A stretch of DNA of 64,000 nucleotides. Origin: Rallus limicola. Lineage: Eukaryota; Chordata; Aves; Gruiformes; Rallidae. The stretch covers positions 1 to 64,000 of the forward strand of contig JAKCOZ010000241.1 in assembly GCA_022605955.1 (NCBI GenBank). The letters are read 5' to 3'. Position 1 is the first letter of the stretch. Each line of letters begins with the position of its first letter. This document shows, piece by piece, positions 17,669 to 54,205 of this stretch. The position numbers and the translations under genes were made by a program. Under the pieces are notes generated by a model that saw nothing but the letters and a program-made list of their open reading frames with translations, was not told the DNA's origin and ran no database searches.

Positions 17669-17672
17669 CACA
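17669..17672 (+). other. 200-bp monomer, CA form (8 of 8, last)
   Basis: TTTCCACAGGC, 9 monomers after 15,885. No 200-bp monomer is seen in the remaining 46 kb, so this site marks the right end of the left domain. Confidence 0.9.
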
Positions 17673-28200: not shown

Positions 28201-28440
28201 GGTCTGCTTGTGTGTCCTGTTAGGAGGTTTCAGACAAGCTATGCCTTTCAGTCCTACCTTCTTTACTTTGGGAGTTATTGCTGGACGTTTAGCATGTTTT
28301 GAACTGCAGTCTGCTAGGGCCGAGAAAAGCACCGTAGGAGGTTCCAGGCATGTTCCCTCTTTCCAGGCAAAGGAAAAGGCTGAGAGCCAAAGTGACAGGG
28401 TCTGCTTGTGTGTCCTGTTAGGAGGTTTCAGACAAGCTAT
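25280..28440 (+). repeat. Left flank of HOR core, 6-mer periodicity
   Basis: CAATCC monomers at 25,871 and 27,059 are 6 monomers apart, each followed by a GACAGAGTC monomer and then by a monomer ending GGAGCTTCC. The block ends with CAGTCC, CAGTCCTGG (28,051) and CAGTCCTACC (about 28,250) monomers. A comparable order is seen at about 47.5-51.1 kb, 112 monomers away by the CAATCC marker (25,871 against 48,047). Confidence 0.7.
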
Positions 28441-29060
28441 GCCTTTCATGCCTAGCTTCTTTACTTTGGGAGTTATTGCTGGACGTTTAGCATGTTTTGA
28501 ACTGCAGTCTGCTAGGGCCGAGAAAAGCACTTTTATAGGTAGCAGGTATGTTCCTTCTTTCCAGGCAAAGGAAAAGGCTGAGAGCCAAAGTGACAGGGTC
28601 TGCTTGTGTGTCCTGTTAGGAGGTTTCAGACAAGCTATGCCTTTCATGCCTAGCTTCTTTACTTTGGGAGTTATTGCTGGACGTTTAGCATGTTTTGAAC
28701 TGCAGTCTGCTAGGGCCGAGAAAAGCACTGTAGGAGGTTCCAGGCATGTTCCCTCTTTCCAGGCAAAGGAAAAGGCTGAGAGCCAAAGTGACAGGGTCTG
28801 CTTGTGTGTCCTGTTAGGAGGTTTCAGACAAGCTATGCCTTTCAATCCTAGCTTCTTTACTTTGGGAGTTATTGCTGGACGTTTAGCATGTTTTGAACTG
28901 CAGTCTGCTAGGGCCGAGAAAAGCACCGTAGGAGGTTCCAGGCATGTTCCCTCTTTCCAGGCAAAGGAAAAGGCTGAGAGCCAAAGTGACAGGGTCTGCT
29001 TGTGTGTCCTGTTAGGAGGTTTCAGACAAGCTATGCCTTTCAGTCCTAGCTTCTTTACTT

Positions 29061-32000
29061 TGTGAGTTATTGCTGGACGTTTAGCATGTTTTGAACTGCA
29101 GTCTGCTAGGGCCGAGAAAAGCACCGTAGGAGGTAGCAGGTATGTTCCTTCTTTCCAGGCAAAGGAAAAGGCTGAGAGCCAAAGTGACAGGGTCTGCTTG
29201 TGTGTCCTGTTAGGAGGTTTCAGACAAGCTATGCCTTTCAGTCCTAGCTTCTTTACTTTGGGAGTTATTGCTGGACGTTTAGCATGTTTTGAACTGCAGT
29301 CTGCTAGGGCCGAGAAAAGCACCGTAGGAGCTTCCAGGCATGTTCCTTCTTTCCAGGCAAAGGAAAAGGCTGAGAGCCAAAGTGACAGGGTCTGCTTGTG
29401 TGTCCTGTTAGGAGGTTTCAGACAAGCTATGCCTTTCATGCCTAGCTTCTTTACTTTGGGAGTTATTGCTGGACGTTTAGCATGTTTTGAACTGCAGTCT
29501 GCTAGGGCCGAGAAAAGCACCGTAGGAGGTTCCAGGCATGTTCCCTCTTTCCAGGCAAAGGAAAAGGCTGAGAGCCAAAGTGACAGGGTCTGCTTGTGTG
29601 TCCTGTTAGGAGGTTTCAGACAAGCTATGCCTTTCAGTCCTAGCTTCTTTACTTTGGGAGTTATTGCTGGACGTTTAGCATGTTTTGAACTGCAGTCTGC
29701 TAGGGCCGAGAAAAGCACTGTAGGAGGTAGCAGGTATGTTCCTTCTTTCCAGGCAAAGGAAAAGGCTGAGAGCCAATGTGACAGGGTCTGCTTGTGTGTC
29801 CTGTTAGGAGGTTTCAGACAAGCTATGCCTTTCATGCCTAGCTTCTTTACTTTGGGAGTTATTGCTGGACGTTTAGCATGTTTTGAACTGCAGTCTGCTA
29901 GGGCCGAGAAAAGCACCGTAGGAGGTTCCAGGCATGTTCCCTCTTTCCAGGCAAAGGAAAAGGCTGAGAGCCAAAGTGACAGGGTCTGCTTGTGTGTCCT
30001 GTTATAAGGTTTCAGACAAGCTATGCCTTTCATGCCTAGCTTCTTTACTTTGGGAGTTATTGCTGGACGTTTAGCATGTTTTGAACTGCAGTCTGCTAGG
30101 GCCGAGAAAAGCACTGTAGATGGTAGCAGGTATGTTCCTTCTTTCCAGGCAAAGGAAAAGGCTGAGAGCCAAAGTGACAGGGTCTGCTTGTGTGTCCTGT
30201 TAGGAGGTTTCAGACAAGCTATGCCTTTCAGTCCTAGCTTCTTTACTTTGGGAGTTATTGCTGGACGTTTAGCATGTTTTGAACTGCAGTCTGCTAGGGC
30301 CGAGAAAAGCACTTTTATAGGTAGCAGGTATGTTCCTTCTTTCCAGGCAAAGGAAAAGGCTGAGAGCCAAAGTGACAGGGTCTGCTTGTGTGTCCTGTTA
30401 GGAGGTTTCAGACAAGCTATGCCTTTCAGTCCTAGCTTCTTTACTTTGGGAGTTATTGCTGGACGTTTAGCATGTTTTGAACTGCAGTCTGCTAGGGCCG
30501 AGAAAAGCACCGTAGGAGGTTCCAGGCATGTTCCCTCTTTCCAGGCAAAGGAAAAGGCTGAGAGCCAAAGTGACAGGGTCTGCTTGTGTGTCCTGTTAGG
30601 AGGTTTCAGACAAGCTATGCCTTTCATGCCTAGCTTCTTTACTTTGGGAGTTATTGCTGGACGTTTAGCATGTTTTGAACTGCAGTCTGCTAGGGCCGAG
30701 AAAAGCACCGTAGGAGCTTCCAGGCATGTTCCCTCTTTCCAGGCAAAGGAAAAGGCTGAGAGCGAAAGTGACAGGGTCTGCTTGTGTGTCCTGTTAGGAG
30801 GTTTCAGACAAGCTATGCCTTTCATGCCTAGCTTCTTTACTTTGGGAGTTATTGCTGGACGTTTAGCATGTTTTGAACTGCAGTCTGCTAGGGCCGAGAA
30901 AAGCACCGTAGTAGCTTCCAGGCATGTTCCCTCTTTCCAGGCAAAGGAAAAGGCTGAGAGCCAAAGTGACAGGGTCTGCTTGTGTGTCCTGTTAGGAGGT
31001 TTCAGACAAGCTATGCCTTTCAATCCTAGCTTCTTTACTTTGGGAGTTATTGCTGGACGTTTAGCATGTTTTGAACTGCAGTCTGCTAGGGCCGAGAAAA
31101 GCACCGTAGGAGGTTCCAGGCATGTTCCCTCTTTCCAGGCAAAGGAAAAGGCTGAGAGCCAAAGTGACAGGGTCTGCTTGTGTGTCCTGTTATAAGGTTT
31201 CAGACAAGCTATGCCTTTCATGCCTAGCTTCTTTACTTTGGGAGTTATTGCTGGACGTTTAGCATGTTTTGAACTGCAGTCTGCTAGGGCCGAGAAAAGC
31301 ACCGTAGGAGGTTCCAGGCATGTTCCCTCTTTCCAGGCAAAGGAAAAGGCTGAGAGCCAAAGTGACAGGGTCAGCTTGTGTGTCCTGTTAGGAGGTTTCA
31401 GACAAGCTATGCCTTTCATGCCTAGCTTCTTTACTTTGGGAGTTATTGCTGGACGTTTAGCATGTTTTGAACTGCAGTCTGCTAGGGCCGAAAAAAGCAC
31501 TTTTATAGGTAGCAGGTATGTTCCTTCTTTCCAGGCAAAGGAAAAGCCTGAGAGCCAAAGTGACAGGGTCTGCTTGTGTGTCCTGTTAGGAGGTTTCAGA
31601 CAAGCTATGCCTTTCATGCCTAGCTTCTTTACTTTGGGAGTTATTGCTGGACGTTTAGCATGTTTTGAACTGCAGTCTGCTAGGGCCGAGAAAAGCACCG
31701 TAGGAGGTTCCAGGCATGTTCCCTCTTTCCAGGCAAAGGAAAAGGCTGAGAGCCAAAGTGACAGGGTCAGCTTGTGTGTCCTGTTAGGAGGTTTCAGACA
31801 AGCTATGCCTTTCAGTCCTAGCTTCTTTACTTTGGGAGTTATTGCTGGACGTTTAGCATGTTTTGAACTGCAGTCTGCTAGGGCCGAGAAAAGCACCGTA
31901 GGAGGTTCCAGGCATGTTCCCTCTTTCCAGGCAAAGGAAAAGGCTGAGAGCCAAAGTGACAGGGTCTGCTTGTGTGTCCTGTTAGGAGGTTTCAGACAAG

Positions 32001-34802
32001 CTATGCCTTTCAGTCCTAGCTTCTTTACTTTGGGAGTTATTGCTGGACGTTTAGCATGTTTTGAACTGCAGTCTGCTAGGGCCGAGAAAAGCACCGTAGG
32101 AGCTTCCAGGCATGTTCCCTCTTTCCAGGCAAAGGAAAAGGCTGAGAGCCAAAGTGACAGAGTCCGCTTGTGTGTCCTGTTAGGAGGTTTCAGACAAGCT
32201 ATGCCTTTCATGCCTAGCTTCTTTACTTTGGGAGTTATTGCTGGACGTTTAGCATGTTTTGAACTGCAGTCTGCTAGGGCCGAGAAAAGCACCGTAGGAG
32301 GTTCCAGGCATGTTCCCTCTTTCCAGGCAAAGGAAAAGGCTGAGAGCCAAAGTGACAGGGTCTGCTTGTGTGTCCTGTTAGGAGGTTTCAGACAAGCTAT
32401 GCCTTTCATGCCTAGCTTCTTTACTTTGGGAGTTATTGCTGGACGTTTAGCATGTTTTGAACTGCAGTCTGCTAGGGCCGAGAAAAGCACCGTAGGAGGT
32501 TCCAGGCATGTTCCCTCTTTCCAGGCAAAGGAAAAGGCTGAGAGCCAAAGTGACAGGGTCTGCTTGTGTGTCCTGTTAGGAGGTTTCAGACAAGCTATGC
32601 CTTTCAGTCCTAGCTTCTTTACTTTGGGAGTTATTGCTGGACGTTTAGCATGTTTTGAACTGCAGTCTGCTAGGGCCGAGAAAAGCACTGTAGGAGGTAG
32701 CAGGTATGTTCCTTCTTTCCAGGCAAAGGAAAAGGCTGAGAGCCAATGTGACAGGGTCTGCTTGTGTGTCCTGTTAGGAGGTTTCAGACAAGCTATGCCT
32801 TTCATGCCTAGCTTCTTTACTTTGGGAGTTATTGCTGGACGTTTAGCATGTTTTGAACTGCAGTCTGCTAGGGCCGAGAAAAGCACCGTAGGAGGTTCCA
32901 GGCATGTTCCCTCTTTCCAGGCAAAGGAAAAGGCTGAGAGCCAAAGTGACAGGGTCTGCTTGTGTGTCCTGTTATAAGGTTTCAGACAAGCTATGCCTTT
33001 CATGCCTAGCTTCTTTACTTTGGGAGTTATTGCTGGACGTTTAGCATGTTTTGAACTGCAGTCTGCTAGGGCCGAGAAAAGCACTGTAGATGGTAGCAGG
33101 TATGTTCCTTCTTTCCAGGCAAAGGAAAAGGCTGAGAGCCAAAGTGACAGGGTCTGCTTGTGTGTCCTGTTAGGAGGTTTCAGACAAGCTATGCCTTTCA
33201 GTCCTAGCTTCTTTACTTTGGGAGTTATTGCTGGACGTTTAGCATGTTTTGAACTGCAGTCTGCTAGGGCCGAGAAAAGCACTTTTATAGGTAGCAGGTA
33301 TGTTCCTTCTTTCCAGGCAAAGGAAAAGGCTGAGAGCCAAAGTGACAGGGTCTGCTTGTGTGTCCTGTTAGGAGGTTTCAGACAAGCTATGCCTTTCATG
33401 CCTAGCTTCTTTACTTTGGGAGTTATTGCTGGACGTTTAGCATGTTTTGAACTGCAGTCTGCTAGGGCCGAGAAAAGCACCGTAGGAGGTTCCAGGCATG
33501 TTCCCTCTTTCCAGGCAAAGGAAAAGGCTGAGAGCCAAAGTGACAGGGTCTGCTTGTGTGTCCTGTTAGGAGGTTTCAGACAAGCTATGCCTTTCAGTCC
33601 TAGCTTCTTTACTTTGGGAGTTATTGCTGGACGTTTAGCATGTTTTGAACTGCAGTCTGCTAGGGCCGAGAAAAGCACCGTAGGAGGTTCCAGGCATGTT
33701 CCCTCTTTCCAGGCAAAGGAAAAGGCTGAGAGCCAAAGTGACAGGGTCAGCTTGTGTGTCCTGTTAGGAGGTTTCAGACAAGCTATGCCTTTCAGTCCTG
33801 GCTTCTTTACTTTGGGAGTTATTGCTGGACGTTTAGCATGTTTTGAACTGCAGTCTGCTAGGGCCGAGAAAAGCACCGTAGGAGGTTCCAGGCATGTTCC
33901 CTCTTTCCAGGCAAAGGAAAAGGCTGAGAGCCAAAGTGACAGGGTCTGCTTGTGTGTCCTGTTAGGAGGTTTCAGACAAGCTATGCCTTTCAGTCCTACC
34001 TTCTTTACTTTGGGAGTTATTGCTGGACGTTTAGCATGTTTTGAACTGCAGTCTGCTAGGGCCGAGAAAAGCACCGTAGGAGGTTCCAGGCATGTTCCCT
34101 CTTTCCAGGCAAAGGAAAAGGCTGAGAGCCAAAGTGACAGGGTCTGCTTGTGTGTCCTGTTAGGAGGTTTCAGACAAGCTATGCCTTTCAGTCCTAGCTT
34201 CTTTACTTTGGGAGTTATTGCTGGACGTTTAGCATGTTTTGAACTGCAGTCTGCTAGGGCCGAGAAAAGCACTTTTATAGGTAGCAGGTATGTTCCTTCT
34301 TTCCAGGCAAAGGAAAAGGCTGAGAGCCAAAGTGACAGGGTCTGCTTGTGTGTCCTGTTAGGAGGTTTCAGACAAGCTATGCCTTTCATGCCTAGCTTCT
34401 TTACTTTGGGAGTTATTGCTGGACGTTTAGCATGTTTTGAACTGCAGTCTGCTAGGGCCGAGAAAAGCACCGTAGGAGGTTCCAGGCATGTTCCCTCTTT
34501 CCAGGCAAAGGAAAAGGCTGAGAGCCAAAGTGACAGGGTCTGCTTGTGTGTCCTGTTAGGAGGTTTCAGACAAGCTATGCCTTTCAATCCTAGCTTCTTT
34601 ACTTTGGGAGTTATTGCTGGACGTTTAGCATGTTTTGAACTGCAGTCTGCTAGGGCCGAGAAAAGCACCGTAGGAGGTTCCAGGCATGTTCCCTCTTTCC
34701 AGGCAAAGGAAAAGGCTGAGAGCCAAAGTGACAGGGTCTGCTTGTGTGTCCTGTTAGGAGGTTTCAGACAAGCTATGCCTTTCAGTCCTAGCTTCTTTAC
34801 TT
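29061..34802 (+). repeat. 29-monomer HOR copy (5,742 bp)
   Basis: Measured between the private TTTGTGAG markers at 29,061 and 34,803. It consists of one odd 15-mer and one even 14-mer together with shared edges. TTTTATA spacing inside is 6, 9 and 5 monomers, with 9 to the neighbours on each side. Confidence 0.9.
30003..32972 (+). repeat. HOR 15-mer unit a (odd type)
   Basis: The unit runs from one GTTATAAGG monomer to the third (30,003; 31,191; 32,973), i.e. 6 + 9 = 15 monomers, 2,970 bp. In order it contains a GTAGATGG monomer, a TTTTATA monomer (30,313), an AGAGCGAAAG monomer, a GTAGTAGC monomer, a CAATCC monomer, then after 31,191 two GTCAGC monomers flanking a TTTTATA monomer (31,501) with AAAAGCCTG, a GAGTCCGC monomer, and an AGCCAATGTG monomer near the end. 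Units c and e repeat this order. Confidence 0.9.
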
Positions 34803-35744
34803 TGTGAGTTATTGCTGGACGTTTAGCATGTTTTGAACTGCAGTCTGCTAGGGCCGAGAAAAGCACCGTAGGAGGTAGCAGGTATGTTCCTTCTTTCCAG
34901 GCAAAGGAAAAGGCTGAGAGCCAAAGTGACAGGGTCTGCTTGTGTGTCCTGTTAGGAGGTTTCAGACAAGCTATGCCTTTCAGTCCTAGCTTCTTTACTT
35001 TGGGAGTTATTGCTGGACGTTTAGCATGTTTTGAACTGCAGTCTGCTAGGGCCGAGAAAAGCACCGTAGGAGCTTCCAGGCATGTTCCTTCTTTCCAGGC
35101 AAAGGAAAAGGCTGAGAGCCAAAGTGACAGGGTCTGCTTGTGTGTCCTGTTAGGAGGTTTCAGACAAGCTATGCCTTTCATGCCTAGCTTCTTTACTTTG
35201 GGAGTTATTGCTGGACGTTTAGCATGTTTTGAACTGCAGTCTGCTAGGGCCGAGAAAAGCACCGTAGGAGGTTCCAGGCATGTTCCCTCTTTCCAGGCAA
35301 AGGAAAAGGCTGAGAGCCAAAGTGACAGGGTCTGCTTGTGTGTCCTGTTAGGAGGTTTCAGACAAGCTATGCCTTTCAGTCCTAGCTTCTTTACTTTGGG
35401 AGTTATTGCTGGACGTTTAGCATGTTTTGAACTGCAGTCTGCTAGGGCCGAGAAAAGCACTGTAGGAGGTAGCAGGTATGTTCCTTCTTTCCAGGCAAAG
35501 GAAAAGGCTGAGAGCCAATGTGACAGGGTCTGCTTGTGTGTCCTGTTAGGAGGTTTCAGACAAGCTATGCCTTTCATGCCTAGCTTCTTTACTTTGGGAG
35601 TTATTGCTGGACGTTTAGCATGTTTTGAACTGCAGTCTGCTAGGGCCGAGAAAAGCACCGTAGGAGGTTCCAGGCATGTTCCCTCTTTCCAGGCAAAGGA
35701 AAAGGCTGAGAGCCAAAGTGACAGGGTCTGCTTGTGTGTCCTGT
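32973..35744 (+). repeat. HOR unit b (even type, 14-mer)
   Basis: This unit has 14 monomers, 2,772 bp. It opens like unit a (GTAGATGG, then TTTTATA at 33,283), then has CAGTCC, CAGTCCTGG (33,793) and CAGTCCTACC monomers, a second TTTTATA (34,273), a CAATCC monomer, a private TTTGTGAG (34,803) and the AGCCAATGTG monomer before the next GTTATAAGG. The segment before 29,061 carries the same middle part, so the HOR order extends left to about 27.84 kb. Confidence 0.9.
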
Positions 35745-38700
35745 TATAAGGTTTCAGACAAGCTATGCCTTTCATGCCTAGCTTCTTTACTTTGGGAGTT
35801 ATTGCTGGACGTTTAGCATGTTTTGAACTGCAGTCTGCTAGGGCCGAGAAAAGCACTGTAGATGGTAGCAGGTATGTTCCTTCTTTCCAGGCAAAGGAAA
35901 AGGCTGAGAGCCAAAGTGACAGGGTCTGCTTGTGTGTCCTGTTAGGAGGTTTCAGACAAGCTATGCCTTTCAGTCCTAGCTTCTTTACTTTGGGAGTTAT
36001 TGCTGGACGTTTAGCATGTTTTGAACTGCAGTCTGCTAGGGCCGAGAAAAGCACTTTTATAGGTAGCAGGTATGTTCCTTCTTTCCAGGCAAAGGAAAAG
36101 GCTGAGAGCCAAAGTGACAGGGTCTGCTTGTGTGTCCTGTTAGGAGGTTTCAGACAAGCTATGCCTTTCAGTCCTAGCTTCTTTACTTTGGGAGTTATTG
36201 CTGGACGTTTAGCATGTTTTGAACTGCAGTCTGCTAGGGCCGAGAAAAGCACCGTAGGAGGTTCCAGGCATGTTCCCTCTTTCCAGGCAAAGGAAAAGGC
36301 TGAGAGCCAAAGTGACAGGGTCTGCTTGTGTGTCCTGTTAGGAGGTTTCAGACAAGCTATGCCTTTCATGCCTAGCTTCTTTACTTTGGGAGTTATTGCT
36401 GGACGTTTAGCATGTTTTGAACTGCAGTCTGCTAGGGCCGAGAAAAGCACCGTAGGAGCTTCCAGGCATGTTCCCTCTTTCCAGGCAAAGGAAAAGGCTG
36501 AGAGCGAAAGTGACAGGGTCTGCTTGTGTGTCCTGTTAGGAGGTTTCAGACAAGCTATGCCTTTCATGCCTAGCTTCTTTACTTTGGGAGTTATTGCTGG
36601 ACGTTTAGCATGTTTTGAACTGCAGTCTGCTAGGGCCGAGAAAAGCACCGTAGTAGCTTCCAGGCATGTTCCCTCTTTCCAGGCAAAGGAAAAGGCTGAG
36701 AGCCAAAGTGACAGGGTCTGCTTGTGTGTCCTGTTAGGAGGTTTCAGACAAGCTATGCCTTTCAATCCTAGCTTCTTTACTTTGGGAGTTATTGCTGGAC
36801 GTTTAGCATGTTTTGAACTGCAGTCTGCTAGGGCCGAGAAAAGCACCGTAGGAGGTTCCAGGCATGTTCCCTCTTTCCAGGCAAAGGAAAAGGCTGAGAG
36901 CCAAAGTGACAGGGTCTGCTTGTGTGTCCTGTTATAAGGTTTCAGACAAGCTATGCCTTTCATGCCTAGCTTCTTTACTTTGGGAGTTATTGCTGGACGT
37001 TTAGCATGTTTTGAACTGCAGTCTGCTAGGGCCGAGAAAAGCACCGTAGGAGGTTCCAGGCATGTTCCCTCTTTCCAGGCAAAGGAAAAGGCTGAGAGCC
37101 AAAGTGACAGGGTCAGCTTGTGTGTCCTGTTAGGAGGTTTCAGACAAGCTATGCCTTTCATGCCTAGCTTCTTTACTTTGGGAGTTATTGCTGGACGTTT
37201 AGCATGTTTTGAACTGCAGTCTGCTAGGGCCGAGAAAAGCACTTTTATAGGTAGCAGGTATGTTCCTTCTTTCCAGGCAAAGGAAAAGCCTGAGAGCCAA
37301 AGTGACAGGGTCTGCTTGTGTGTCCTGTTAGGAGGTTTCAGACAAGCTATGCCTTTCATGCCTAGCTTCTTTACTTTGGGAGTTATTGCTGGACGTTTAG
37401 CATGTTTTGAACTGCAGTCTGCTAGGGCCGAGAAAAGCACCGTAGGAGGTTCCAGGCATGTTCCCTCTTTCCAGGCAAAGGAAAAGGCTGAGAGCCAAAG
37501 TGACAGGGTCAGCTTGTGTGTCCTGTTAGGAGGTTTCAGACAAGCTATGCCTTTCAGTCCTAGCTTCTTTACTTTGGGAGTTATTGCTGGACGTTTAGCA
37601 TGTTTTGAACTGCAGTCTGCTAGGGCCGAGAAAAGCACCGTAGGAGGTTCCAGGCATGTTCCCTCTTTCCAGGCAAAGGAAAAGGCTGAGAGCCAAAGTG
37701 ACAGGGTCTGCTTGTGTGTCCTGTTAGGAGGTTTCAGACAAGCTATGCCTTTCAGTCCTAGCTTCTTTACTTTGGGAGTTATTGCTGGACGTTTAGCATG
37801 TTTTGAACTGCAGTCTGCTAGGGCCGAGAAAAGCACCGTAGGAGCTTCCAGGCATGTTCCCTCTTTCCAGGCAAAGGAAAAGGCTGAGAGCCAAAGTGAC
37901 AGAGTCCGCTTGTGTGTCCTGTTAGGAGGTTTCAGACAAGCTATGCCTTTCATGCCTAGCTTCTTTACTTTGGGAGTTATTGCTGGACGTTTAGCATGTT
38001 TTGAACTGCAGTCTGCTAGGGCCGAGAAAAGCACCGTAGGAGGTTCCAGGCATGTTCCCTCTTTCCAGGCAAAGGAAAAGGCTGAGAGCCAAAGTGACAG
38101 GGTCTGCTTGTGTGTCCTGTTAGGAGGTTTCAGACAAGCTATGCCTTTCATGCCTAGCTTCTTTACTTTGGGAGTTATTGCTGGACGTTTAGCATGTTTT
38201 GAACTGCAGTCTGCTAGGGCCGAGAAAAGCACCGTAGGAGGTTCCAGGCATGTTCCCTCTTTCCAGGCAAAGGAAAAGGCTGAGAGCCAAAGTGACAGGG
38301 TCTGCTTGTGTGTCCTGTTAGGAGGTTTCAGACAAGCTATGCCTTTCAGTCCTAGCTTCTTTACTTTGGGAGTTATTGCTGGACGTTTAGCATGTTTTGA
38401 ACTGCAGTCTGCTAGGGCCGAGAAAAGCACTGTAGGAGGTAGCAGGTATGTTCCTTCTTTCCAGGCAAAGGAAAAGGCTGAGAGCCAATGTGACAGGGTC
38501 TGCTTGTGTGTCCTGTTAGGAGGTTTCAGACAAGCTATGCCTTTCATGCCTAGCTTCTTTACTTTGGGAGTTATTGCTGGACGTTTAGCATGTTTTGAAC
38601 TGCAGTCTGCTAGGGCCGAGAAAAGCACCGTAGGAGGTTCCAGGCATGTTCCCTCTTTCCAGGCAAAGGAAAAGGCTGAGAGCCAAAGTGACAGGGTCTG

Positions 38701-40742
38701 CTTGTGTGTCCTGTTATAAGGTTTCAGACAAGCTATGCCTTTCATGCCTAGCTTCTTTACTTTGGGAGTTATTGCTGGACGTTTAGCATGTTTTGAACTG
38801 CAGTCTGCTAGGGCCGAGAAAAGCACTGTAGATGGTAGCAGGTATGTTCCTTCTTTCCAGGCAAAGGAAAAGGCTGAGAGCCAAAGTGACAGGGTCTGCT
38901 TGTGTGTCCTGTTAGGAGGTTTCAGACAAGCTATGCCTTTCAGTCCTAGCTTCTTTACTTTGGGAGTTATTGCTGGACGTTTAGCATGTTTTGAACTGCA
39001 GTCTGCTAGGGCCGAGAAAAGCACTTTTATAGGTAGCAGGTATGTTCCTTCTTTCCAGGCAAAGGAAAAGGCTGAGAGCCAAAGTGACAGGGTCTGCTTG
39101 TGTGTCCTGTTAGGAGGTTTCAGACAAGCTATGCCTTTCATGCCTAGCTTCTTTACTTTGGGAGTTATTGCTGGACGTTTAGCATGTTTTGAACTGCAGT
39201 CTGCTAGGGCCGAGAAAAGCACCGTAGGAGGTTCCAGGCATGTTCCCTCTTTCCAGGCAAAGGAAAAGGCTGAGAGCCAAAGTGACAGGGTCTGCTTGTG
39301 TGTCCTGTTAGGAGGTTTCAGACAAGCTATGCCTTTCATGCCTAGCTTCTTTACTTTGGGAGTTATTGCTGGACGTTTAGCATGTTTTGAACTGCAGTCT
39401 GCTAGGGCCGAGAAAAGCACCGTAGGAGCTTCCAGGCATGTTCCCTCTTTCCAGGCAAAGGAAAAGGCTGAGAGCGAAAGTGACAGGGTCTGCTTGTGTG
39501 TCCTGTTAGGAGGTTTCAGACAAGCTATGCCTTTCATGCCTAGCTTCTTTACTTTGGGAGTTATTGCTGGACGTTTAGCATGTTTTGAACTGCAGTCTGC
39601 TAGGGCCGAGAAAAGCACCGTAGTAGCTTCCAGGCATGTTCCCTCTTTCCAGGCAAAGGAAAAGGCTGAGAGCCAAAGTGACAGGGTCTGCTTGTGTGTC
39701 CTGTTAGGAGGTTTCAGACAAGCTATGCCTTTCAATCCTAGCTTCTTTACTTTGGGAGTTATTGCTGGACGTTTAGCATGTTTTGAACTGCAGTCTGCTA
39801 GGGCCGAGAAAAGCACCGTAGGAGGTTCCAGGCATGTTCCCTCTTTCCAGGCAAAGGAAAAGGCTGAGAGCCAAAGTGACAGGGTCTGCTTGTGTGTCCT
39901 GTTAGGAGGTTTCAGACAAGCTATGCCTTTCAGTCCTAGCTTCTTTACTTTGGGAGTTATTGCTGGACGTTTAGCATGTTTTGAACTGCAGTCTGCTAGG
40001 GCCGAGAAAAGCACCGTAGGAGGTTCCAGGCATGTTCCCTCTTTCCAGGCAAAGGAAAAGGCTGAGAGCCAAAGTGACAGGGTCTGCTTGTGTGTCCTGT
40101 TAGGAGGTTTCAGACAAGCTATGCCTTTCAGTCCTAGCTTCTTTACTTTGGGAGTTATTGCTGGACGTTTAGCATGTTTTGAACTGCAGTCTGCTAGGGC
40201 CGAGAAAAGCACTTTTATAGGTAGCAGGTATGTTCCTTCTTTCCAGGCAAAGGAAAAGGCTGAGAGCCAAAGTGACAGGGTCTGCTTGTGTGTCCTGTTA
40301 GGAGGTTTCAGACAAGCTATGCCTTTCATGCCTAGCTTCTTTACTTTGGGAGTTATTGCTGGACGTTTAGCATGTTTTGAACTGCAGTCTGCTAGGGCCG
40401 AGAAAAGCACCGTAGGAGGTTCCAGGCATGTTCCCTCTTTCCAGGCAAAGGAAAAGGCTGAGAGCCAAAGTGACAGGGTCTGCTTGTGTGTCCTGTTAGG
40501 AGGTTTCAGACAAGCTATGCCTTTCAATCCTAGCTTCTTTACTTTGGGAGTTATTGCTGGACGTTTAGCATGTTTTGAACTGCAGTCTGCTAGGGCCGAG
40601 AAAAGCACCGTAGGAGGTTCCAGGCATGTTCCCTCTTTCCAGGCAAAGGAAAAGGCTGAGAGCCAAAGTGACAGGGTCTGCTTGTGTGTCCTGTTAGGAG
40701 GTTTCAGACAAGCTATGCCTTTCAGTCCTAGCTTCTTTACTT
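34803..40742 (+). repeat. 30-monomer HOR copy (5,940 bp)
   Basis: Measured between TTTGTGAG at 34,803 and 40,743. TTTTATA monomers lie at 36,055, 37,243, 39,025 and 40,213, spaced 6, 9 and 6 monomers. The following copy (from 40,743) matches it at +5,940 until about 46.06 kb. Confidence 0.9.
35745..38714 (+). repeat. HOR 15-mer unit c (odd type)
   Basis: GTTATAAGG at 35,745, 36,933 and 38,715 gives 6 + 9 monomers. Variant order matches unit a at an offset of 5,742 bp (29 monomers). One difference I noticed is at about 31,492, where unit a has GCCGAAAAAA and unit c has GCCGAGAAAA. Confidence 0.9.
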
Positions 40743-41684
40743 TGTGAGTTATTGCTGGACGTTTAGCATGTTTTGAACTGCAGTCTGCTAGGGCCGAGAA
40801 AAGCACCGTAGGAGGTAGCAGGTATGTTCCTTCTTTCCAGGCAAAGGAAAAGGCTGAGAGCCAAAGTGACAGGGTCTGCTTGTGTGTCCTGTTAGGAGGT
40901 TTCAGACAAGCTATGCCTTTCAGTCCTAGCTTCTTTACTTTGGGAGTTATTGCTGGACGTTTAGCATGTTTTGAACTGCAGTCTGCTAGGGCCGAGAAAA
41001 GCACCGTAGGAGCTTCCAGGCATGTTCCTTCTTTCCAGGCAAAGGAAAAGGCTGAGAGCCAAAGTGACAGGGTCTGCTTGTGTGTCCTGTTAGGAGGTTT
41101 CAGACAAGCTATGCCTTTCATGCCTAGCTTCTTTACTTTGGGAGTTATTGCTGGACGTTTAGCATGTTTTGAACTGCAGTCTGCTAGGGCCGAGAAAAGC
41201 ACCGTAGGAGGTTCCAGGCATGTTCCCTCTTTCCAGGCAAAGGAAAAGGCTGAGAGCCAAAGTGACAGGGTCTGCTTGTGTGTCCTGTTAGGAGGTTTCA
41301 GACAAGCTATGCCTTTCAGTCCTAGCTTCTTTACTTTGGGAGTTATTGCTGGACGTTTAGCATGTTTTGAACTGCAGTCTGCTAGGGCCGAGAAAAGCAC
41401 TGTAGGAGGTAGCAGGTATGTTCCTTCTTTCCAGGCAAAGGAAAAGGCTGAGAGCCAATGTGACAGGGTCTGCTTGTGTGTCCTGTTAGGAGGTTTCAGA
41501 CAAGCTATGCCTTTCATGCCTAGCTTCTTTACTTTGGGAGTTATTGCTGGACGTTTAGCATGTTTTGAACTGCAGTCTGCTAGGGCCGAGAAAAGCACCG
41601 TAGGAGGTTCCAGGCATGTTCCCTCTTTCCAGGCAAAGGAAAAGGCTGAGAGCCAAAGTGACAGGGTCTGCTTGTGTGTCCTGT
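38715..41684 (+). repeat. HOR 15-mer unit d (even type, remodelled)
   Basis: It begins and ends like unit b, including TTTGTGAG at 40,743. However, the three monomers CAGTCC, CAGTCCTGG and CAGTCCTACC are replaced by four: AGAGCGAAAG, GTAGTAGC, CAATCC and CAGTCC. The first three of these are the odd-unit sequence, so the unit is 15 rather than 14 monomers long. Confidence 0.88.
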
Positions 41685-44654
41685 TATAAGGTTTCAGACA
41701 AGCTATGCCTTTCATGCCTAGCTTCTTTACTTTGGGAGTTATTGCTGGACGTTTAGCATGTTTTGAACTGCAGTCTGCTAGGGCCGAGAAAAGCACTGTA
41801 GATGGTAGCAGGTATGTTCCTTCTTTCCAGGCAAAGGAAAAGGCTGAGAGCCAAAGTGACAGGGTCTGCTTGTGTGTCCTGTTAGGAGGTTTCAGACAAG
41901 CTATGCCTTTCAGTCCTAGCTTCTTTACTTTGGGAGTTATTGCTGGACGTTTAGCATGTTTTGAACTGCAGTCTGCTAGGGCCGAGAAAAGCACTTTTAT
42001 AGGTAGCAGGTATGTTCCTTCTTTCCAGGCAAAGGAAAAGGCTGAGAGCCAAAGTGACAGGGTCTGCTTGTGTGTCCTGTTAGGAGGTTTCAGACAAGCT
42101 ATGCCTTTCAGTCCTAGCTTCTTTACTTTGGGAGTTATTGCTGGACGTTTAGCATGTTTTGAACTGCAGTCTGCTAGGGCCGAGAAAAGCACCGTAGGAG
42201 GTTCCAGGCATGTTCCCTCTTTCCAGGCAAAGGAAAAGGCTGAGAGCCAAAGTGACAGGGTCTGCTTGTGTGTCCTGTTAGGAGGTTTCAGACAAGCTAT
42301 GCCTTTCATGCCTAGCTTCTTTACTTTGGGAGTTATTGCTGGACGTTTAGCATGTTTTGAACTGCAGTCTGCTAGGGCCGAGAAAAGCACCGTAGGAGCT
42401 TCCAGGCATGTTCCCTCTTTCCAGGCAAAGGAAAAGGCTGAGAGCGAAAGTGACAGGGTCTGCTTGTGTGTCCTGTTAGGAGGTTTCAGACAAGCTATGC
42501 CTTTCATGCCTAGCTTCTTTACTTTGGGAGTTATTGCTGGACGTTTAGCATGTTTTGAACTGCAGTCTGCTAGGGCCGAGAAAAGCACCGTAGTAGCTTC
42601 CAGGCATGTTCCCTCTTTCCAGGCAAAGGAAAAGGCTGAGAGCCAAAGTGACAGGGTCTGCTTGTGTGTCCTGTTAGGAGGTTTCAGACAAGCTATGCCT
42701 TTCAATCCTAGCTTCTTTACTTTGGGAGTTATTGCTGGACGTTTAGCATGTTTTGAACTGCAGTCTGCTAGGGCCGAGAAAAGCACCGTAGGAGGTTCCA
42801 GGCATGTTCCCTCTTTCCAGGCAAAGGAAAAGGCTGAGAGCCAAAGTGACAGGGTCTGCTTGTGTGTCCTGTTATAAGGTTTCAGACAAGCTATGCCTTT
42901 CATGCCTAGCTTCTTTACTTTGGGAGTTATTGCTGGACGTTTAGCATGTTTTGAACTGCAGTCTGCTAGGGCCGAGAAAAGCACCGTAGGAGGTTCCAGG
43001 CATGTTCCCTCTTTCCAGGCAAAGGAAAAGGCTGAGAGCCAAAGTGACAGGGTCAGCTTGTGTGTCCTGTTAGGAGGTTTCAGACAAGCTATGCCTTTCA
43101 TGCCTAGCTTCTTTACTTTGGGAGTTATTGCTGGACGTTTAGCATGTTTTGAACTGCAGTCTGCTAGGGCCGAGAAAAGCACTTTTATAGGTAGCAGGTA
43201 TGTTCCTTCTTTCCAGGCAAAGGAAAAGCCTGAGAGCCAAAGTGACAGGGTCTGCTTGTGTGTCCTGTTAGGAGGTTTCAGACAAGCTATGCCTTTCATG
43301 CCTAGCTTCTTTACTTTGGGAGTTATTGCTGGACGTTTAGCATGTTTTGAACTGCAGTCTGCTAGGGCCGAGAAAAGCACCGTAGGAGGTTCCAGGCATG
43401 TTCCCTCTTTCCAGGCAAAGGAAAAGGCTGAGAGCCAAAGTGACAGGGTCAGCTTGTGTGTCCTGTTAGGAGGTTTCAGACAAGCTATGCCTTTCAGTCC
43501 TAGCTTCTTTACTTTGGGAGTTATTGCTGGACGTTTAGCATGTTTTGAACTGCAGTCTGCTAGGGCCGAGAAAAGCACCGTAGGAGGTTCCAGGCATGTT
43601 CCCTCTTTCCAGGCAAAGGAAAAGGCTGAGAGCCAAAGTGACAGGGTCTGCTTGTGTGTCCTGTTAGGAGGTTTCAGACAAGCTATGCCTTTCAGTCCTA
43701 GCTTCTTTACTTTGGGAGTTATTGCTGGACGTTTAGCATGTTTTGAACTGCAGTCTGCTAGGGCCGAGAAAAGCACCGTAGGAGCTTCCAGGCATGTTCC
43801 CTCTTTCCAGGCAAAGGAAAAGGCTGAGAGCCAAAGTGACAGAGTCCGCTTGTGTGTCCTGTTAGGAGGTTTCAGACAAGCTATGCCTTTCATGCCTAGC
43901 TTCTTTACTTTGGGAGTTATTGCTGGACGTTTAGCATGTTTTGAACTGCAGTCTGCTAGGGCCGAGAAAAGCACCGTAGGAGGTTCCAGGCATGTTCCCT
44001 CTTTCCAGGCAAAGGAAAAGGCTGAGAGCCAAAGTGACAGGGTCTGCTTGTGTGTCCTGTTAGGAGGTTTCAGACAAGCTATGCCTTTCATGCCTAGCTT
44101 CTTTACTTTGGGAGTTATTGCTGGACGTTTAGCATGTTTTGAACTGCAGTCTGCTAGGGCCGAGAAAAGCACCGTAGGAGGTTCCAGGCATGTTCCCTCT
44201 TTCCAGGCAAAGGAAAAGGCTGAGAGCCAAAGTGACAGGGTCTGCTTGTGTGTCCTGTTAGGAGGTTTCAGACAAGCTATGCCTTTCAGTCCTAGCTTCT
44301 TTACTTTGGGAGTTATTGCTGGACGTTTAGCATGTTTTGAACTGCAGTCTGCTAGGGCCGAGAAAAGCACTGTAGGAGGTAGCAGGTATGTTCCTTCTTT
44401 CCAGGCAAAGGAAAAGGCTGAGAGCCAATGTGACAGGGTCTGCTTGTGTGTCCTGTTAGGAGGTTTCAGACAAGCTATGCCTTTCATGCCTAGCTTCTTT
44501 ACTTTGGGAGTTATTGCTGGACGTTTAGCATGTTTTGAACTGCAGTCTGCTAGGGCCGAGAAAAGCACCGTAGGAGGTTCCAGGCATGTTCCCTCTTTCC
44601 AGGCAAAGGAAAAGGCTGAGAGCCAAAGTGACAGGGTCTGCTTGTGTGTCCTGT
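41685..44654 (+). repeat. HOR 15-mer unit e (odd type)
   Basis: GTTATAAGG at 41,685, 42,873 and 44,655. Variant order matches unit c at an offset of 5,940 bp, exactly 30 monomers, which shows that odd and even 15-mers travel together as a 30-mer. Confidence 0.9.
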
Positions 44655-47640
44655 TATAAGGTTTCAGACAAGCTATGCCTTTCATGCCTAGCTTCTTTAC
44701 TTTGGGAGTTATTGCTGGACGTTTAGCATGTTTTGAACTGCAGTCTGCTAGGGCCGAGAAAAGCACTGTAGATGGTAGCAGGTATGTTCCTTCTTTCCAG
44801 GCAAAGGAAAAGGCTGAGAGCCAAAGTGACAGGGTCTGCTTGTGTGTCCTGTTAGGAGGTTTCAGACAAGCTATGCCTTTCAGTCCTAGCTTCTTTACTT
44901 TGGGAGTTATTGCTGGACGTTTAGCATGTTTTGAACTGCAGTCTGCTAGGGCCGAGAAAAGCACTTTTATAGGTAGCAGGTATGTTCCTTCTTTCCAGGC
45001 AAAGGAAAAGGCTGAGAGCCAAAGTGACAGGGTCTGCTTGTGTGTCCTGTTAGGAGGTTTCAGACAAGCTATGCCTTTCATGCCTAGCTTCTTTACTTTG
45101 GGAGTTATTGCTGGACGTTTAGCATGTTTTGAACTGCAGTCTGCTAGGGCCGAGAAAAGCACCGTAGGAGGTTCCAGGCATGTTCCCTCTTTCCAGGCAA
45201 AGGAAAAGGCTGAGAGCCAAAGTGACAGGGTCTGCTTGTGTGTCCTGTTAGGAGGTTTCAGACAAGCTATGCCTTTCATGCCTAGCTTCTTTACTTTGGG
45301 AGTTATTGCTGGACGTTTAGCATGTTTTGAACTGCAGTCTGCTAGGGCCGAGAAAAGCACCGTAGGAGCTTCCAGGCATGTTCCCTCTTTCCAGGCAAAG
45401 GAAAAGGCTGAGAGCGAAAGTGACAGGGTCTGCTTGTGTGTCCTGTTAGGAGGTTTCAGACAAGCTATGCCTTTCATGCCTAGCTTCTTTACTTTGGGAG
45501 TTATTGCTGGACGTTTAGCATGTTTTGAACTGCAGTCTGCTAGGGCCGAGAAAAGCACCGTAGTAGCTTCCAGGCATGTTCCCTCTTTCCAGGCAAAGGA
45601 AAAGGCTGAGAGCCAAAGTGACAGGGTCTGCTTGTGTGTCCTGTTAGGAGGTTTCAGACAAGCTATGCCTTTCAATCCTAGCTTCTTTACTTTGGGAGTT
45701 ATTGCTGGACGTTTAGCATGTTTTGAACTGCAGTCTGCTAGGGCCGAGAAAAGCACCGTAGGAGGTTCCAGGCATGTTCCCTCTTTCCAGGCAAAGGAAA
45801 AGGCTGAGAGCCAAAGTGACAGGGTCTGCTTGTGTGTCCTGTTAGGAGGTTTCAGACAAGCTATGCCTTTCAGTCCTAGCTTCTTTACTTTGGGAGTTAT
45901 TGCTGGACGTTTAGCATGTTTTGAACTGCAGTCTGCTAGGGCCGAGAAAAGCACCGTAGGAGGTTCCAGGCATGTTCCCTCTTTCCAGGCAAAGGAAAAG
46001 GCTGAGAGCCAAAGTGACAGGGTCTGCTTGTGTGTCCTGTTAGGAGGTTTCAGACAAGCTATGCCTTTCATGCCTAGCTTCTTTACTTTGGGAGTTATTG
46101 CTGGACGTTTAGCATGTTTTGAACTGCAGTCTGCTAGGGCCGAGAAAAGCACCGTAGGAGCTTCCAGGCATGTTCCCTCTTTCCAGGCAAAGGAAAAGGC
46201 TGAGAGCGAAAGTGACAGGGTCTGCTTGTGTGTCCTGTTAGGAGGTTTCAGACAAGCTATGCCTTTCATGCCTAGCTTCTTTACTTTGGGAGTTATTGCT
46301 GGACGTTTAGCATGTTTTGAACTGCAGTCTGCTAGGGCCGAGAAAAGCACCGTAGTAGCTTCCAGGCATGTTCCCTCTTTCCAGGCAAAGGAAAAGGCTG
46401 AGAGCCAAAGTGACAGGGTCTGCTTGTGTGTCCTGTTAGGAGGTTTCAGACAAGCTATGCCTTTCAATCCTAGCTTCTTTACTTTGGGAGTTATTGCTGG
46501 ACGTTTAGCATGTTTTGAACTGCAGTCTGCTAGGGCCGAGAAAAGCACCGTAGGAGGTTCCAGGCATGTTCCCTCTTTCCAGGCAAAGGAAAAGGCTGAG
46601 AGCCAAAGTGACAGGGTCTGCTTGTGTGTCCTGTTATAAGGTTTCAGACAAGCTATGCCTTTCATGCCTAGCTTCTTTACTTTGGGAGTTATTGCTGGAC
46701 GTTTAGCATGTTTTGAACTGCAGTCTGCTAGGGCCGAGAAAAGCACCGTAGGAGGTTCCAGGCATGTTCCCTCTTTCCAGGCAAAGGAAAAGGCTGAGAG
46801 CCAAAGTGACAGGGTCAGCTTGTGTGTCCTGTTAGGAGGTTTCAGACAAGCTATGCCTTTCATGCCTAGCTTCTTTACTTTGGGAGTTATTGCTGGACGT
46901 TTAGCATGTTTTGAACTGCAGTCTGCTAGGGCCGAGAAAAGCACTTTTATAGGTAGCAGGTATGTTCCTTCTTTCCAGGCAAAGGAAAAGCCTGAGAGCC
47001 AAAGTGACAGGGTCTGCTTGTGTGTCCTGTTAGGAGGTTTCAGACAAGCTATGCCTTTCATGCCTAGCTTCTTTACTTTGGGAGTTATTGCTGGACGTTT
47101 AGCATGTTTTGAACTGCAGTCTGCTAGGGCCGAGAAAAGCACCGTAGGAGGTTCCAGGCATGTTCCCTCTTTCCAGGCAAAGGAAAAGGCTGAGAGCCAA
47201 AGTGACAGGGTCAGCTTGTGTGTCCTGTTAGGAGGTTTCAGACAAGCTATGCCTTTCAGTCCTAGCTTCTTTACTTTGGGAGTTATTGCTGGACGTTTAG
47301 CATGTTTTGAACTGCAGTCTGCTAGGGCCGAGAAAAGCACCGTAGGAGGTTCCAGGCATGTTCCCTCTTTCCAGGCAAAGGAAAAGGCTGAGAGCCAAAG
47401 TGACAGGGTCTGCTTGTGTGTCCTGTTAGGAGGTTTCAGACAAGCTATGCCTTTCAGTCCTAGCTTCTTTACTTTGGGAGTTATTGCTGGACGTTTAGCA
47501 TGTTTTGAACTGCAGTCTGCTAGGGCCGAGAAAAGCACCGTAGGAGCTTCCAGGCATGTTCCCTCTTTCCAGGCAAAGGAAAAGGCTGAGAGCCAAAGTG
47601 ACAGAGTCTGCTTGTGTGTCCTGTTAGGAGGTTTCAGACA
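44655..47640 (+). repeat. HOR unit f (hybrid, truncated)
   Basis: It starts as an even unit matching d (GTAGATGG, TTTTATA at 44,965, AGAGCGAAAG, GTAGTAGC, CAATCC, CAGTCC). Near 46.05 kb it repeats AGAGCGAAAG, GTAGTAGC and CAATCC, reaches a GTTATAAGG at 46,635 and continues as the second half of an odd unit (GTCAGC, TTTTATA at 46,945 with AAAAGCCTG, GTCAGC). The odd-unit GAGTCCGC is GAGTCTGC here. HOR order is lost by about 47.6 kb. Confidence 0.85.
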
Positions 47641-50220
47641 AGCTATGCCTTTCATGCCTAGCTTCTTTACTTTGGGAGTTATTGCTGGACGTTTAGCATG
47701 TTTTGAACTGCAGTCTGCTAGGGCCGAGAAAAGCACCGTAGGAGGTTCCAGGCATGTTCCCTCTTTCCAGGCAAAGGAAAAGGCTGAGAGCCAAAGTGAC
47801 AGGGTCTGCTTGTGTGTCCTGTTAGGAGGTTTCAGACAAGCTATGCCTTTCATGCCTAGCTTCTTTACTTTGGGAGTTATTGCTGGACGTTTAGCATGTT
47901 TTGAACTGCAGTCTGCTAGGGCCGAGAAAAGCACCGTAGGAGGTTCCAGGCATGTTCCCTCTTTCCAGGCAAAGGAAAAGGCTGAGAGCCAAAGTGACAG
48001 GGTCTGCTTGTGTGTCCTGTTAGGAGGTTTCAGACAAGCTATGCCTTTCAATCCTAGCTTCTTTACTTTGGGAGTTATTGCTGGACGTTTAGCATGTTTT
48101 GAACTGCAGTCTGCTAGGGCCGAGAAAAGCACCGTAGGAGGTTCCAGGCATGTTCCCTCTTTCCAGGCAAAGGAAAAGGCTGAGAGCCAAAGTGACAGAG
48201 TCTGCTTGTGTGTCCTGTTAGGAGGTTTCAGACAAGCTATGCCTTTCATGCCTAGCTTCTTTACTTTGGGAGTTATTGCTGGACGTTTAGCATGTTTTGA
48301 ACTGCAGTCTGCTAGGGCCGAGAAAAGCACCGTAGGAGGTTCCAGGCATGTTCCCTCTTTCCAGGCAAAGGAAAAGGCTGAGAGCCAAAGTGACAGGGTC
48401 TGCTTGTGTGTCCTGTTAGGAGGTTTCAGACAAGCTATGCCTTTCATGCCTAGCTTCTTTACTTTGGGAGTTATTGCTGGACGTTTAGCATGTTTTGAAC
48501 TGCAGTCTGCTAGGGCCGAGAAAAGCACCGTAGGAGCTTCCAGGCATGTTCCCTCTTTCCAGGCAAAGGAAAAGGCTGAGAGCCAAAGTGACAGGGTCTG
48601 CTTGTGTGTCCTGTTAGGAGGTTTCAGACAAGCTATGCCTTTCATGCCTAGCTTCTTTACTTTGGGAGTTATTGCTGGACGTTTAGCATGTTTTGAACTG
48701 CAGTCTGCTAGGGCCGAGAAAAGCACCGTAGGAGCTTCCAGGCATGTTCCCTCTTTCCAGGCAAAGGAAAAGGCTGAGAGCCAAAGTGACAGAGTCTGCT
48801 TGTGTGTCCTGTTAGGAGGTTTCAGACAAGCTATGCCTTTCATGCCTAGCTTCTTTACTTTGGGAGTTATTGCTGGACGTTTAGCATGTTTTGAACTGCA
48901 GTCTGCTAGGGCCGAGAAAAGCACCGTAGGAGGTTCCAGGCATGTTCCCTCTTTCCAGGCAAAGGAAAAGGCTGAGAGCCAAAGTGACAGAGTCTGCTTG
49001 TGTGTCCTGTTAGGAGGTTTCAGACAAGCTATGCCTTTCATGCCTAGCTTCTTTACTTTGGGAGTTATTGCTGGACGTTTAGCATGTTTTGAACTGCAGT
49101 CTGCTAGGGCCGAGAAAAGCACCGTAGGAGGTTCCAGGCATGTTCCCTCTTTCCAGGCAAAGGAAAAGGCTGAGAGCCAAAGTGACAGGGTCTGCTTGTG
49201 TGTCCTGTTAGGAGGTTTCAGACAAGCTATGCCTTTCATGCCTAGCTTCTTTACTTTGGGAGTTATTGCTGGACGTTTAGCATGTTTTGAACTGCAGTCT
49301 GCTAGGGCCGAGAAAAGCACCGTAGGAGCTTCCAGGCATGTTCCCTCTTTCCAGGCAAAGGAAAAGGCTGAGAGCCAAAGTGACAGGGTCTGCTTGTGTG
49401 TCCTGTTAGGAGGTTTCAGACAAGCTATGCCTTTCATGCCTAGCTTCTTTACTTTGGGAGTTATTGCTGGACGTTTAGCATGTTTTGAACTGCAGTCTGC
49501 TAGGGCCGAGAAAAGCACCGTAGGAGCTTCCAGGCATGTTCCCTCTTTCCAGGCAAAGGAAAAGGCTGAGAGCCAAAGTGACAGAGTCTGCTTGTGTGTC
49601 CTGTTAGGAGGTTTCAGACAAGCTATGCCTTTCATGCCTAGCTTCTTTACTTTGGGAGTTATTGCTGGACGTTTAGCATGTTTTGAACTGCAGTCTGCTA
49701 GGGCCGAGAAAAGCACCGTAGGAGGTTCCAGGCATGTTCCCTCTTTCCAGGCAAAGGAAAAGGCTGAGAGCCAAAGTGACAGGGTCTGCTTGTGTGTCCT
49801 GTTAGGAGGTTTCAGACAAGCTATGCCTTTCATGCCTAGCTTCTTTACTTTGGGAGTTATTGCTGGACGTTTAGCATGTTTTGAACTGCAGTCTGCTAGG
49901 GCCGAGAAAAGCACTGTAGGAGGTTCCAGGCATGTTCCCTCTTTCCAGGCAAAGGAAAAGGCTGAGAGCCAAAGTGACAGGGTCTGCTTGTGTGTCCTGT
50001 TAGGAGGTTTCAGACAAGCTATGCCTTTCAATCCTAGCTTCTTTACTTTGGGAGTTATTGCTGGACGTTTAGCATGTTTTGAACTGCAGTCTGCTAGGGC
50101 CGAGAAAAGCACCGTAGGAGGTTCCAGGCATGTTCCCTCTTTCCAGGCAAAGGAAAAGGCTGAGAGCCAAAGTGACAGGGTCTGCTTGTGTGTCCTGTTA
50201 GGAGGTTTCAGACAAGCTAT
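47640..50220 (+). repeat. Right flank of HOR core, irregular order
   Basis: The 198-bp register is perfect but the variant order is loose. CAATCC monomers are at 48,047 and 50,027 (10 monomers apart), with GACAGAGTC monomers and pairs of GGAGCTTCC monomers between. The order is similar to 25.3-27.9 kb. No GTTATAAGG or TTTTATA monomer is present here. Confidence 0.75.
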
Positions 50221-53900: not shown

Positions 53901-54189
53901 CTTTCCAGGCAAAGGAAAAGGCTGAGAGCCAAAGTGACAGGGTCTGCTTGTGTGTCCTGTTAGGAGGTTTCAGACAAGCTATGCCTTTCATGCCTAGCTT
54001 CTTTACTTTGGGAGTTATTGCTGGACGTTTAGCATGTTTTGAACTGCAGTCTGCTAGGGCCGAGAAAAGCACTTTTATAGGTAGCAGGTATGTTCCTTCT
54101 TTCCAGGCAAAGGAAAAGGCTGAGAGCCAAAGTGACAGGGTCTGCTTGTGTGTCCTGTTAGGAGGTTTCAGACAAGCTATGCCTTTCAT

Positions 54190-54205
54190 GCCTAGCTTAT
54201 TACTT
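54190..54205 (+). other. Local -1 rearrangement (TAGCTTATTACTTTG)
   Basis: TAGCTTATTACTTTG replaces TAGCTTCTTTACTTTG, giving a 197-bp monomer. It is the only single-base loss to the right of 5.3 kb and ends the 10,349-codon reverse open frame. Confidence 0.9.

What the first reader, a model, noticed from the sequence alone, without database searches (positions are those of the whole stretch)
29061..46654. 15-mer higher-order unit dimerised into a 30-mer
GTAGATGG monomers begin units just after GTTATAAGG at 30,003, 32,973, 35,745, 38,715, 41,685 and 44,655. The spacings are 15, 14, 15, 15 and 15 monomers. TTTTATA spacing alternates 9, 6, 9, 5, 9, 6, 9, 6, 9, 6, 9, 10 from 28,531. Odd and even units differ consistently, so the repeating entity is a 30-mer (5,940 bp) built from two related 15-mers. 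Two nested periods above the monomer are a clear record of successive amplification steps.
Basis: seen in the sequence. Interest (0 to 1): 0.75.

Follow-up and report, generated by a model that had tools for sequence, protein, structure and literature searches.

The report
Nested tandem duplications in satellite DNA
A stretch of repetitive 198-letter satellite DNA looks as if a 15-copy block had doubled into a 30-copy block, but it is better read as two overlapping local duplications, of 29 and then 30 copies, which is an ordinary way for such arrays to change.

Summary
The listed motif spacings are real and exact, inside a 198-bp satellite array that fills every fetched part of a 369-kb contig. 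A 29-monomer and then a 30-monomer tandem duplication rebuild all 103 monomers of 27,634-48,027 from 44 sources, with 9 mismatches in 20,394 bases and both spacing series. The even "15-mer" b2 is the junction chimera of the second event (0 mismatches). Odd and even spacers show no clear kinship (71 of 500 shuffled orders align as well). What recurs every 14-15 monomers is a cassette, W-X-Y in 18 of 18 cases in 264 kb, with other neighbours elsewhere. A paralogue 84-91 kb away has the first event but not the second; two diagnostic sites order the events. Raw identity at lag 15 equals that at lag 30 (0.986, 0.985) because one unit is a 14-mer; in phase, lag 30 is far better (0.03 against 1.65 mismatches per monomer). 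Species not identified. Ordinary satellite turnover, unusually legible.

The parts
86..63866 (+). Array of 322 head-to-tail 198-bp satellite monomers; the window is satellite throughout
   Evidence: TRF period 198, 323 copies, 97% matches, 5-64000; 322 monomers segmented
27634..33375 (+). First copy of the 29-monomer tandem duplication (event 1): P(10) ZWXY Q(11) ZWXY, 5,742 bp
   Evidence: monomers 139-167 pair with 168-196 with 5 mismatches in 29 monomers; exact lag-29 stretches 27693-28448, 28730-31491, 31493-33596
33376..39117 (+). Second copy of the 29-monomer duplication
   Evidence: as above
34168..40107 (+). First copy of the 30-monomer tandem duplication (event 2), 5,940 bp; overlaps the second event-1 copy
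   Evidence: monomers 172-201 equal 202-231 with 0 mismatches; exact DNA identity 34000-40130 = 39940-46070
40108..46047 (+). Second copy of the 30-monomer duplication
30010..32979 (+). Odd unit a1 (15 monomers: X Y Q Z W)
32980..35751 (+). Even unit b1, a 14-mer; source of the phase slip
35752..38721 (+). Odd unit a2 (15 monomers); 1 mismatch to a1
38722..41691 (+). Even unit b2, a 15-mer; junction chimera of event 2: 7 monomers identical to b3, then 8 identical to b1
   Evidence: 0 and 0 mismatches
41692..44661 (+). Odd unit a3 (15 monomers); identical to a2
44662..48027 (+). Even unit b3 and exit from the structure; from 46048 ten monomers match a-unit monomers 4-13 (1 mismatch)
29812..30405 (+). 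One W-X-Y cassette (GTTATAAGG-ending monomer, GTAGATGG monomer, TTTTATA monomer), the recurrent unit marker
   Evidence: 18 of 18 X monomers in 264 kb are W-X-Y

Best explanation
This is an interior patch of a large satellite array (198-bp monomer, taken to be non-coding). It grew by two overlapping in-register tandem duplications, most likely from unequal homologous exchange, between sister chromatids or homologues, at nearly identical monomers. The starting string was P(10) ZWXY Q(11) ZWXY R(15), with a single pair of cassettes 15 monomers apart. Event 1 duplicated 29 monomers (P ZWXY Q ZWXY). A segment of tens of kb then gave a paralogue in the same contig. Event 2, in the window copy only, duplicated 30 monomers running from the middle of P to R5. 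Its junction created b2, whose 15-monomer length matches the odd unit by coincidence. Shown: the repeats, the chimeric junction, the paralogue and the diagnostic sites. Inferred: that the events were unequal exchanges, and that the assembly is right here.
For: The two-event model gives 103 monomers from 44 sources with 9 mismatches in 20,394 bases (5 independent) and reproduces both spacing series exactly. b2 equals b3[1-7] plus b1[7-14] with 0 mismatches. Event-2 copies differ by 0 in 30 monomers and are exact over 6,131 bp. With event 2 undone, the stretch aligns to the paralogue with gaps of 1 (end) and 2 monomers only, 12 mismatches in 70 monomers; as it stands the second gap is 32 monomers. 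Monomer P6 carries 106T in the first and 106C in the second event-1 copy in both paralogues, so event 1 predates the split; P5 24-25GT occurs only in the two event-2 copies among five homologous monomers, so event 2 follows it. At the paralogue divergence 5.1 mismatches would be expected between event-2 copies, 0 seen, Poisson 0.006. Steps between monomers are 198 in 1,309 of 1,332 cases, so gains and losses are mostly in register.
Against: The stage-0 string was chosen from the same data, so its fit is partly built in; the paralogue is the independent check. A deletion of 30 monomers in the paralogue gives the same topology and is disfavoured only by the divergence and one pair of adjacent diagnostic bases, which gene conversion could imitate. 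In one search a control that removed a different 29 monomers also aligned 70 monomers with 12 mismatches and needed only one more one-monomer gap, so the exact breakpoints are weakly fixed by that alignment. The P-Q test leaves room for an ancient 15-mer relation (cost 45, shuffled mean 52, 71 of 500 as good), and R is related to Q (0 of 500). One paper on human arrays argues that the spread of new units there needs more than simple unequal crossover (PMC11062924, passage). No reads were available to exclude assembly error.
Confidence: 0.85

Rival explanations
1. One reading: a 15-mer arose, duplicated, diverged into two versions, and the 30-mer dimer was then amplified as a higher-order repeat.
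For: The inner a-b2 alignment is closer than any of 1000 shuffled orders and a-b2 identity is 99.2%, against about 97.1% for random monomer pairs of the stretch; cassettes fall every 14-15 monomers.
Against: The a-b1 inner part is matched or beaten by 229 of 1000 shuffled orders and P-Q by 71 of 500; a-b2 kinship comes from b2's first half, which is b3's a-like start. Even units are not one type. The paralogue shows the first duplication without the 30-mer.
Confidence: 0.08
2. The exact 30-mer pair, or the larger paralogous segment, is an assembly product (a false extra copy, or two haplotypes joined end to end). This can hold together with the duplication history and is not exclusive of it.
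For: The 30-mer copies are identical over 6,131 bp; monomers of odd length cluster near the contig start and 198-periodicity is weaker in its last 7.5 kb, as consensus noise would give; the contig begins and ends inside satellite.
Against: The paralogue differs by 59 mismatches in 280 aligned monomers and by eight monomer-block gaps, so it is not a simple repeat of one sequence. If it were an allele, event 2 would still postdate the split. Event 1 is seen in both paralogues.
Confidence: 0.1
3. A fixed array-wide higher-order repeat of about 30 monomers.
For: Lags of 32 and 31 are best at 0-24 kb.
Against: Local exact runs of 6 or more monomers at lag up to 100 occur at 21 distinct lags from 10 to 84, covering 587 of 1332 monomers; best lags change from patch to patch.
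Confidence: 0.02

Closest known systems
Human alpha-satellite higher-order repeats (171-bp monomers)
   Same: Head-to-tail monomers, whole-monomer gains and losses, and local expansion. PMC9859433 (passages seen) describes a 34-mer thought to derive from a 36-mer by monomer deletions, and array duplications of hundreds of kb; [quoted passage not shown]
   Different: There one unit is repeated over long arrays; here unit size changes every few tens of kb and the 30-mer has about two copies. The window has 0 CENP-B-box-like sites with up to 2 mismatches (box recalled). The monomer sequences themselves were not compared.
Local or irregular higher-order duplications of plant centromere satellites such as Arabidopsis CEN178 (recalled; one search gave a listing only)
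   Same: Many local duplications of differing unit length inside one array.
   Different: Different monomer length (178 bp, recalled) and organism; not compared by sequence here.
Unequal-crossover model of tandem repeat evolution (Smith 1976; recalled, not read)
   Same: Nested periodicities arise from random in-register exchange without a dimerisation step.
   Different: No contradiction seen; here individual events can be ordered through a paralogue. No simulation was run.

Membership tests
Satellite DNA array | Long head-to-tail array of near-identical monomers | tested here: met
   198-bp period through 264 kb of contig C241 plus the last 10 kb; 97% matches in the window
Higher-order repeat (HOR) array | A multimonomer unit whose copies are more alike than the monomers within it | tested here: met
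   30-monomer copies 0 mismatches against 5.76 per random monomer pair, locally
Higher-order repeat (HOR) array | Unit repeated many times and dominating the array | tested here: not met
   One 29-mer pair and one 30-mer pair; 21 distinct local lags in 264 kb
   71 of 500 shuffles of Q align to P as well; clear homology is limited to the cassette and to the b3-derived monomers of b2. An ancient relation is not excluded
Functional centromere satellite | Binds the centromeric histone | not testable with these tools
   No chromatin data; 0 CENP-B-box-like sites within 2 mismatches in the window, which does not exclude it
Protein-coding repeat | Selection on the reading frame or protein relatives | tested here: inconclusive
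   A minus-strand frame is open for 10,349 codons, as a 66-codon period without a stop allows; 0 of 536 candidates at E 0.001; no codon-level test was run

The most novel reading that the evidence does not exclude
The W-X-Y cassette could be a recombination-prone or protein-bound anchor: it keeps its order in arrays whose neighbouring monomers differ, and event 1 joins in the monomer directly after it, so duplications might be seeded at cassettes rather than at random monomers.
Probability: 0.06. Interest if true: 0.55.

Novelty: new member of a known kind. Interest (0 to 1): 0.3.

Why it matters
It shows that regular-looking nested periods in a satellite (15 and 30) need not record a 15-mer that dimerised. 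A junction chimera can imitate an even unit by length alone, so lag plots should be checked against explicit duplication models. Two paralogous stretches 84-91 kb apart in one contig let single duplication and deletion events be ordered within one assembly.

Tried and rejected
Rejected: array-wide 30-mer; two homologous 15-mers; internal half-monomer duplication (score 18 against shuffled mean 20 and maximum 36). A coding repeat as the reason for the long minus-strand frame is thought unlikely, not excluded (no codon test made). CENP-B-box-like sites: 0 in the window. RNA families in 29,000-36,000: 0 matches.

Led nowhere: no similar DNA in phages or plasmids, and no exact match of one 27-base piece in viral or prokaryote contigs. 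Paper searches for a 198-bp satellite listed 0, 2, 5 and 2 papers, none of which I opened. The search by sequence words found 0 papers; one of its six words is not a true piece of the monomer, by my typing error. Listings for context. So I cannot say that this satellite is undescribed. The species was not identified: the family search meant to help never got an answer. One control (a pure 30-mer laid over monomers 151-240, 429 mismatches) is unfair because it ignores the one-monomer phase slip; I do not use it. The a-b alignments are optimised, so their identities are slightly flattering.

Full report
What the window is. TRF reads 5-64,000 as one array of period 198, 97% matches. I segmented 322 monomers, 100 of them distinct. 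The window is bases 1-64,000 of contig C241 (369,090 bp) in a 1.395-Gb, 1,102-contig assembly, which by size I take to be a eukaryote's. I read bases 1-264,000 and the last 10 kb of that contig: satellite throughout. Steps between monomers are 198 in 1,309 of 1,332 cases. The two DNA queries matched 17 other contigs between them (40 of 540 candidates scored; 40 of 593 scored), and 7 of 7 short probes across the 1.86-Mb contig C77 fall in the satellite, in both orientations.

The observation. Spacings of GTAGATGG and TTTTATA are exactly as reported. Units: a1 30010-32979 (15), b1 32980-35751 (14), a2 35752-38721 (15), b2 38722-41691 (15), a3 41692-44661 (15), b3 from 44662. a1-a2 and a1-a3 differ by 1 base, a2-a3 by 0; b1-b2 by 8 bases plus one monomer; a-b1 and a-b2 by 24-33; a-b0 and a-b3 by 53-57; b2 and b3 agree for 7 monomers and then part. 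Random monomer pairs in the stretch differ by 5.76 bases.

Over its span, mean identity is 0.986 at lag 15 and 0.985 at lag 30, which by the stated rule would refute the claim. The tie comes from the 14-monomer b1, which shifts the phase. In monomers 171-231 lag 30 gives 0.03 mismatches per monomer (31 pairs) and lag 15 gives 1.65 (46 pairs); in monomers 145-197 lag 29 gives 0.04 (24 pairs). The lags exceed chance: 2.84 observed for the best lag up to 45, against a minimum of 4.17 in 1000 permutations of monomer order.

The two-event model. Name the monomers Z, W, X, Y (cassette), P (10 monomers, 139-148), Q (11, 153-163) and R (197-201 then 232-241). From the string P ZWXY Q ZWXY R, duplicating the first 29 monomers and then the 30 monomers from P5 of the second P to R5 gives 103 monomers. 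Compared with the real 103 monomers (27,634-48,027) there are 9 mismatches in 20,394 bases; 4 of them repeat others through the second duplication, so 5 are independent. The model yields GTAGATGG spacings 15, 14, 15, 15, 15 and TTTTATA spacings 9, 6, 9, 5, 9, 6, 9, 6, 9, 6, 9, 10; the starting string has only 9, 6, 9, 10. 59 of the 103 monomers are predicted rather than given. The starting string was chosen from these data, so the fit is partly built in. The chimeric origin of b2 is exact: its first 7 monomers equal those of b3 and its last 8 equal b1's last 8, 0 mismatches each. The exact DNA identity of event 2 runs 34,000-40,130 against 39,940-46,070: 191 bases more than the unit, so I infer an exchange within a 191-bp identical tract, in register.

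Are odd and even units related? The inner part of a2 against b2 is better than all 1000 shuffled orders, but against b1 229 of 1000 shuffles do as well; P against Q 71 of 500, Q against R 0 of 500, P against R 40 of 500. P against 11-mer windows elsewhere: 12.5% of 376 are as close as Q. So b2's kinship to a comes through R, and the shared part otherwise is the cassette and the monomer before it. An ancient relation of P and Q is not excluded.

The paralogue. An alignment of monomers 90-559 with 575-919 pairs 280 monomers (19,119-102,080 with 115,938-174,347) with 59 mismatches; 245 pairs are identical. It has eight monomer-block gaps: six in the second copy, 140 monomers, and two in the first, 16 monomers. 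Here the stretch reads b0, a, b (12 monomers), a, b3. With event 2 undone the window aligns with a one-monomer end gap and a two-monomer gap, 12 mismatches in 70 monomers; as it is, the second gap is 32 monomers. A control that removed a different 29 monomers gave the same 12 mismatches and one further one-monomer gap, so that alignment alone fixes the breakpoints weakly; the exact b2 junction fixes them better. The two-monomer gap falls at a monomer at 125,244 that carries the 24A of one neighbour type and the 114C and 130T of another, as an in-register deletion inside a monomer would leave.

Order of events. P6 has 106T at 28,624 and 119,304 (first copies) and 106C at 34,366, 40,306 and 125,046 (second copies): event 1 predates the split of the paralogues. 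P5 has 24-25GT at 34,168 and 40,108 only, and TG at 28,426, 119,106 and 124,848: the change came after the split and before event 2. Event-2 copies differ by 0 where 5.1 would be expected at the paralogue rate, Poisson 0.006. Each step rests on few sites, and gene conversion could imitate them.

The rest of the array. Exact runs of 6 or more monomers at lags up to 100 number 34, at 21 distinct lags from 10 to 84, covering 587 of 1,332 monomers; 5 permutations gave none. The longest is 51 monomers at lag 59. X monomers number 18 in 264 kb and all 18 sit between W and Y. In the eight loci fetched by an X+Y query (L001-L008; L007 and L008 overlap) X is preceded by a W-type monomer in 8 of 8, while the monomers after Y differ between loci. 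Cassette spacing is 21 monomers in part of C334 (L030) and 17 in part of C164 (L031, with a variant X). The start of the odd spacer (793 bases) has full-score matches only on C241, at 7 places, among the 40 of 593 candidates scored.

Placement. It behaves like a satellite with local higher-order duplications. It is a HOR by the criterion of copy identity but not by the criterion of a dominant, many-copy unit. Literature for comparison: PMC9859433 and PMC11062924, passages only; the second argues that the spread of new units in human arrays implies more than simple unequal crossover, so the exchange mechanism here stays an inference. Arabidopsis CEN178 and the unequal-crossover model are recalled; one search was a listing only.

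Noticed in passing
G000:C241:19119-102080 (window part 19119-64000) and G000:C241:115938-174347: A segmental duplication within the array: 280 monomers aligned with 59 mismatches and whole-monomer gaps, offset 72-97 kb along its length.
   Followed up: partly
   Followed up: no
window 86-11984: A 32-monomer local repeat (lag 32 best), more diverged than the 30-mer.
   Followed up: no
window 56343-59114: A 9-monomer repeat carrying the same W-X-Y cassette.
   Followed up: no
monomer positions 21-40 and 101-140: Variation is concentrated: these 60 of 198 positions hold 4,619 of 5,524 variant letters in 1,607 monomers, much of it a linked haplotype.
   Followed up: partly
window 23140-54189, minus strand: An open frame of 10,349 codons, as a stop-free 66-codon period allows; 0 of 536 candidate proteins at E 0.001.
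   Followed up: partly
L043 (G000:C77:600001-600400): Satellite in both orientations within 400 bases: an inversion junction in a 1.86-Mb contig in which 7 of 7 probes are satellite.
   Followed up: no
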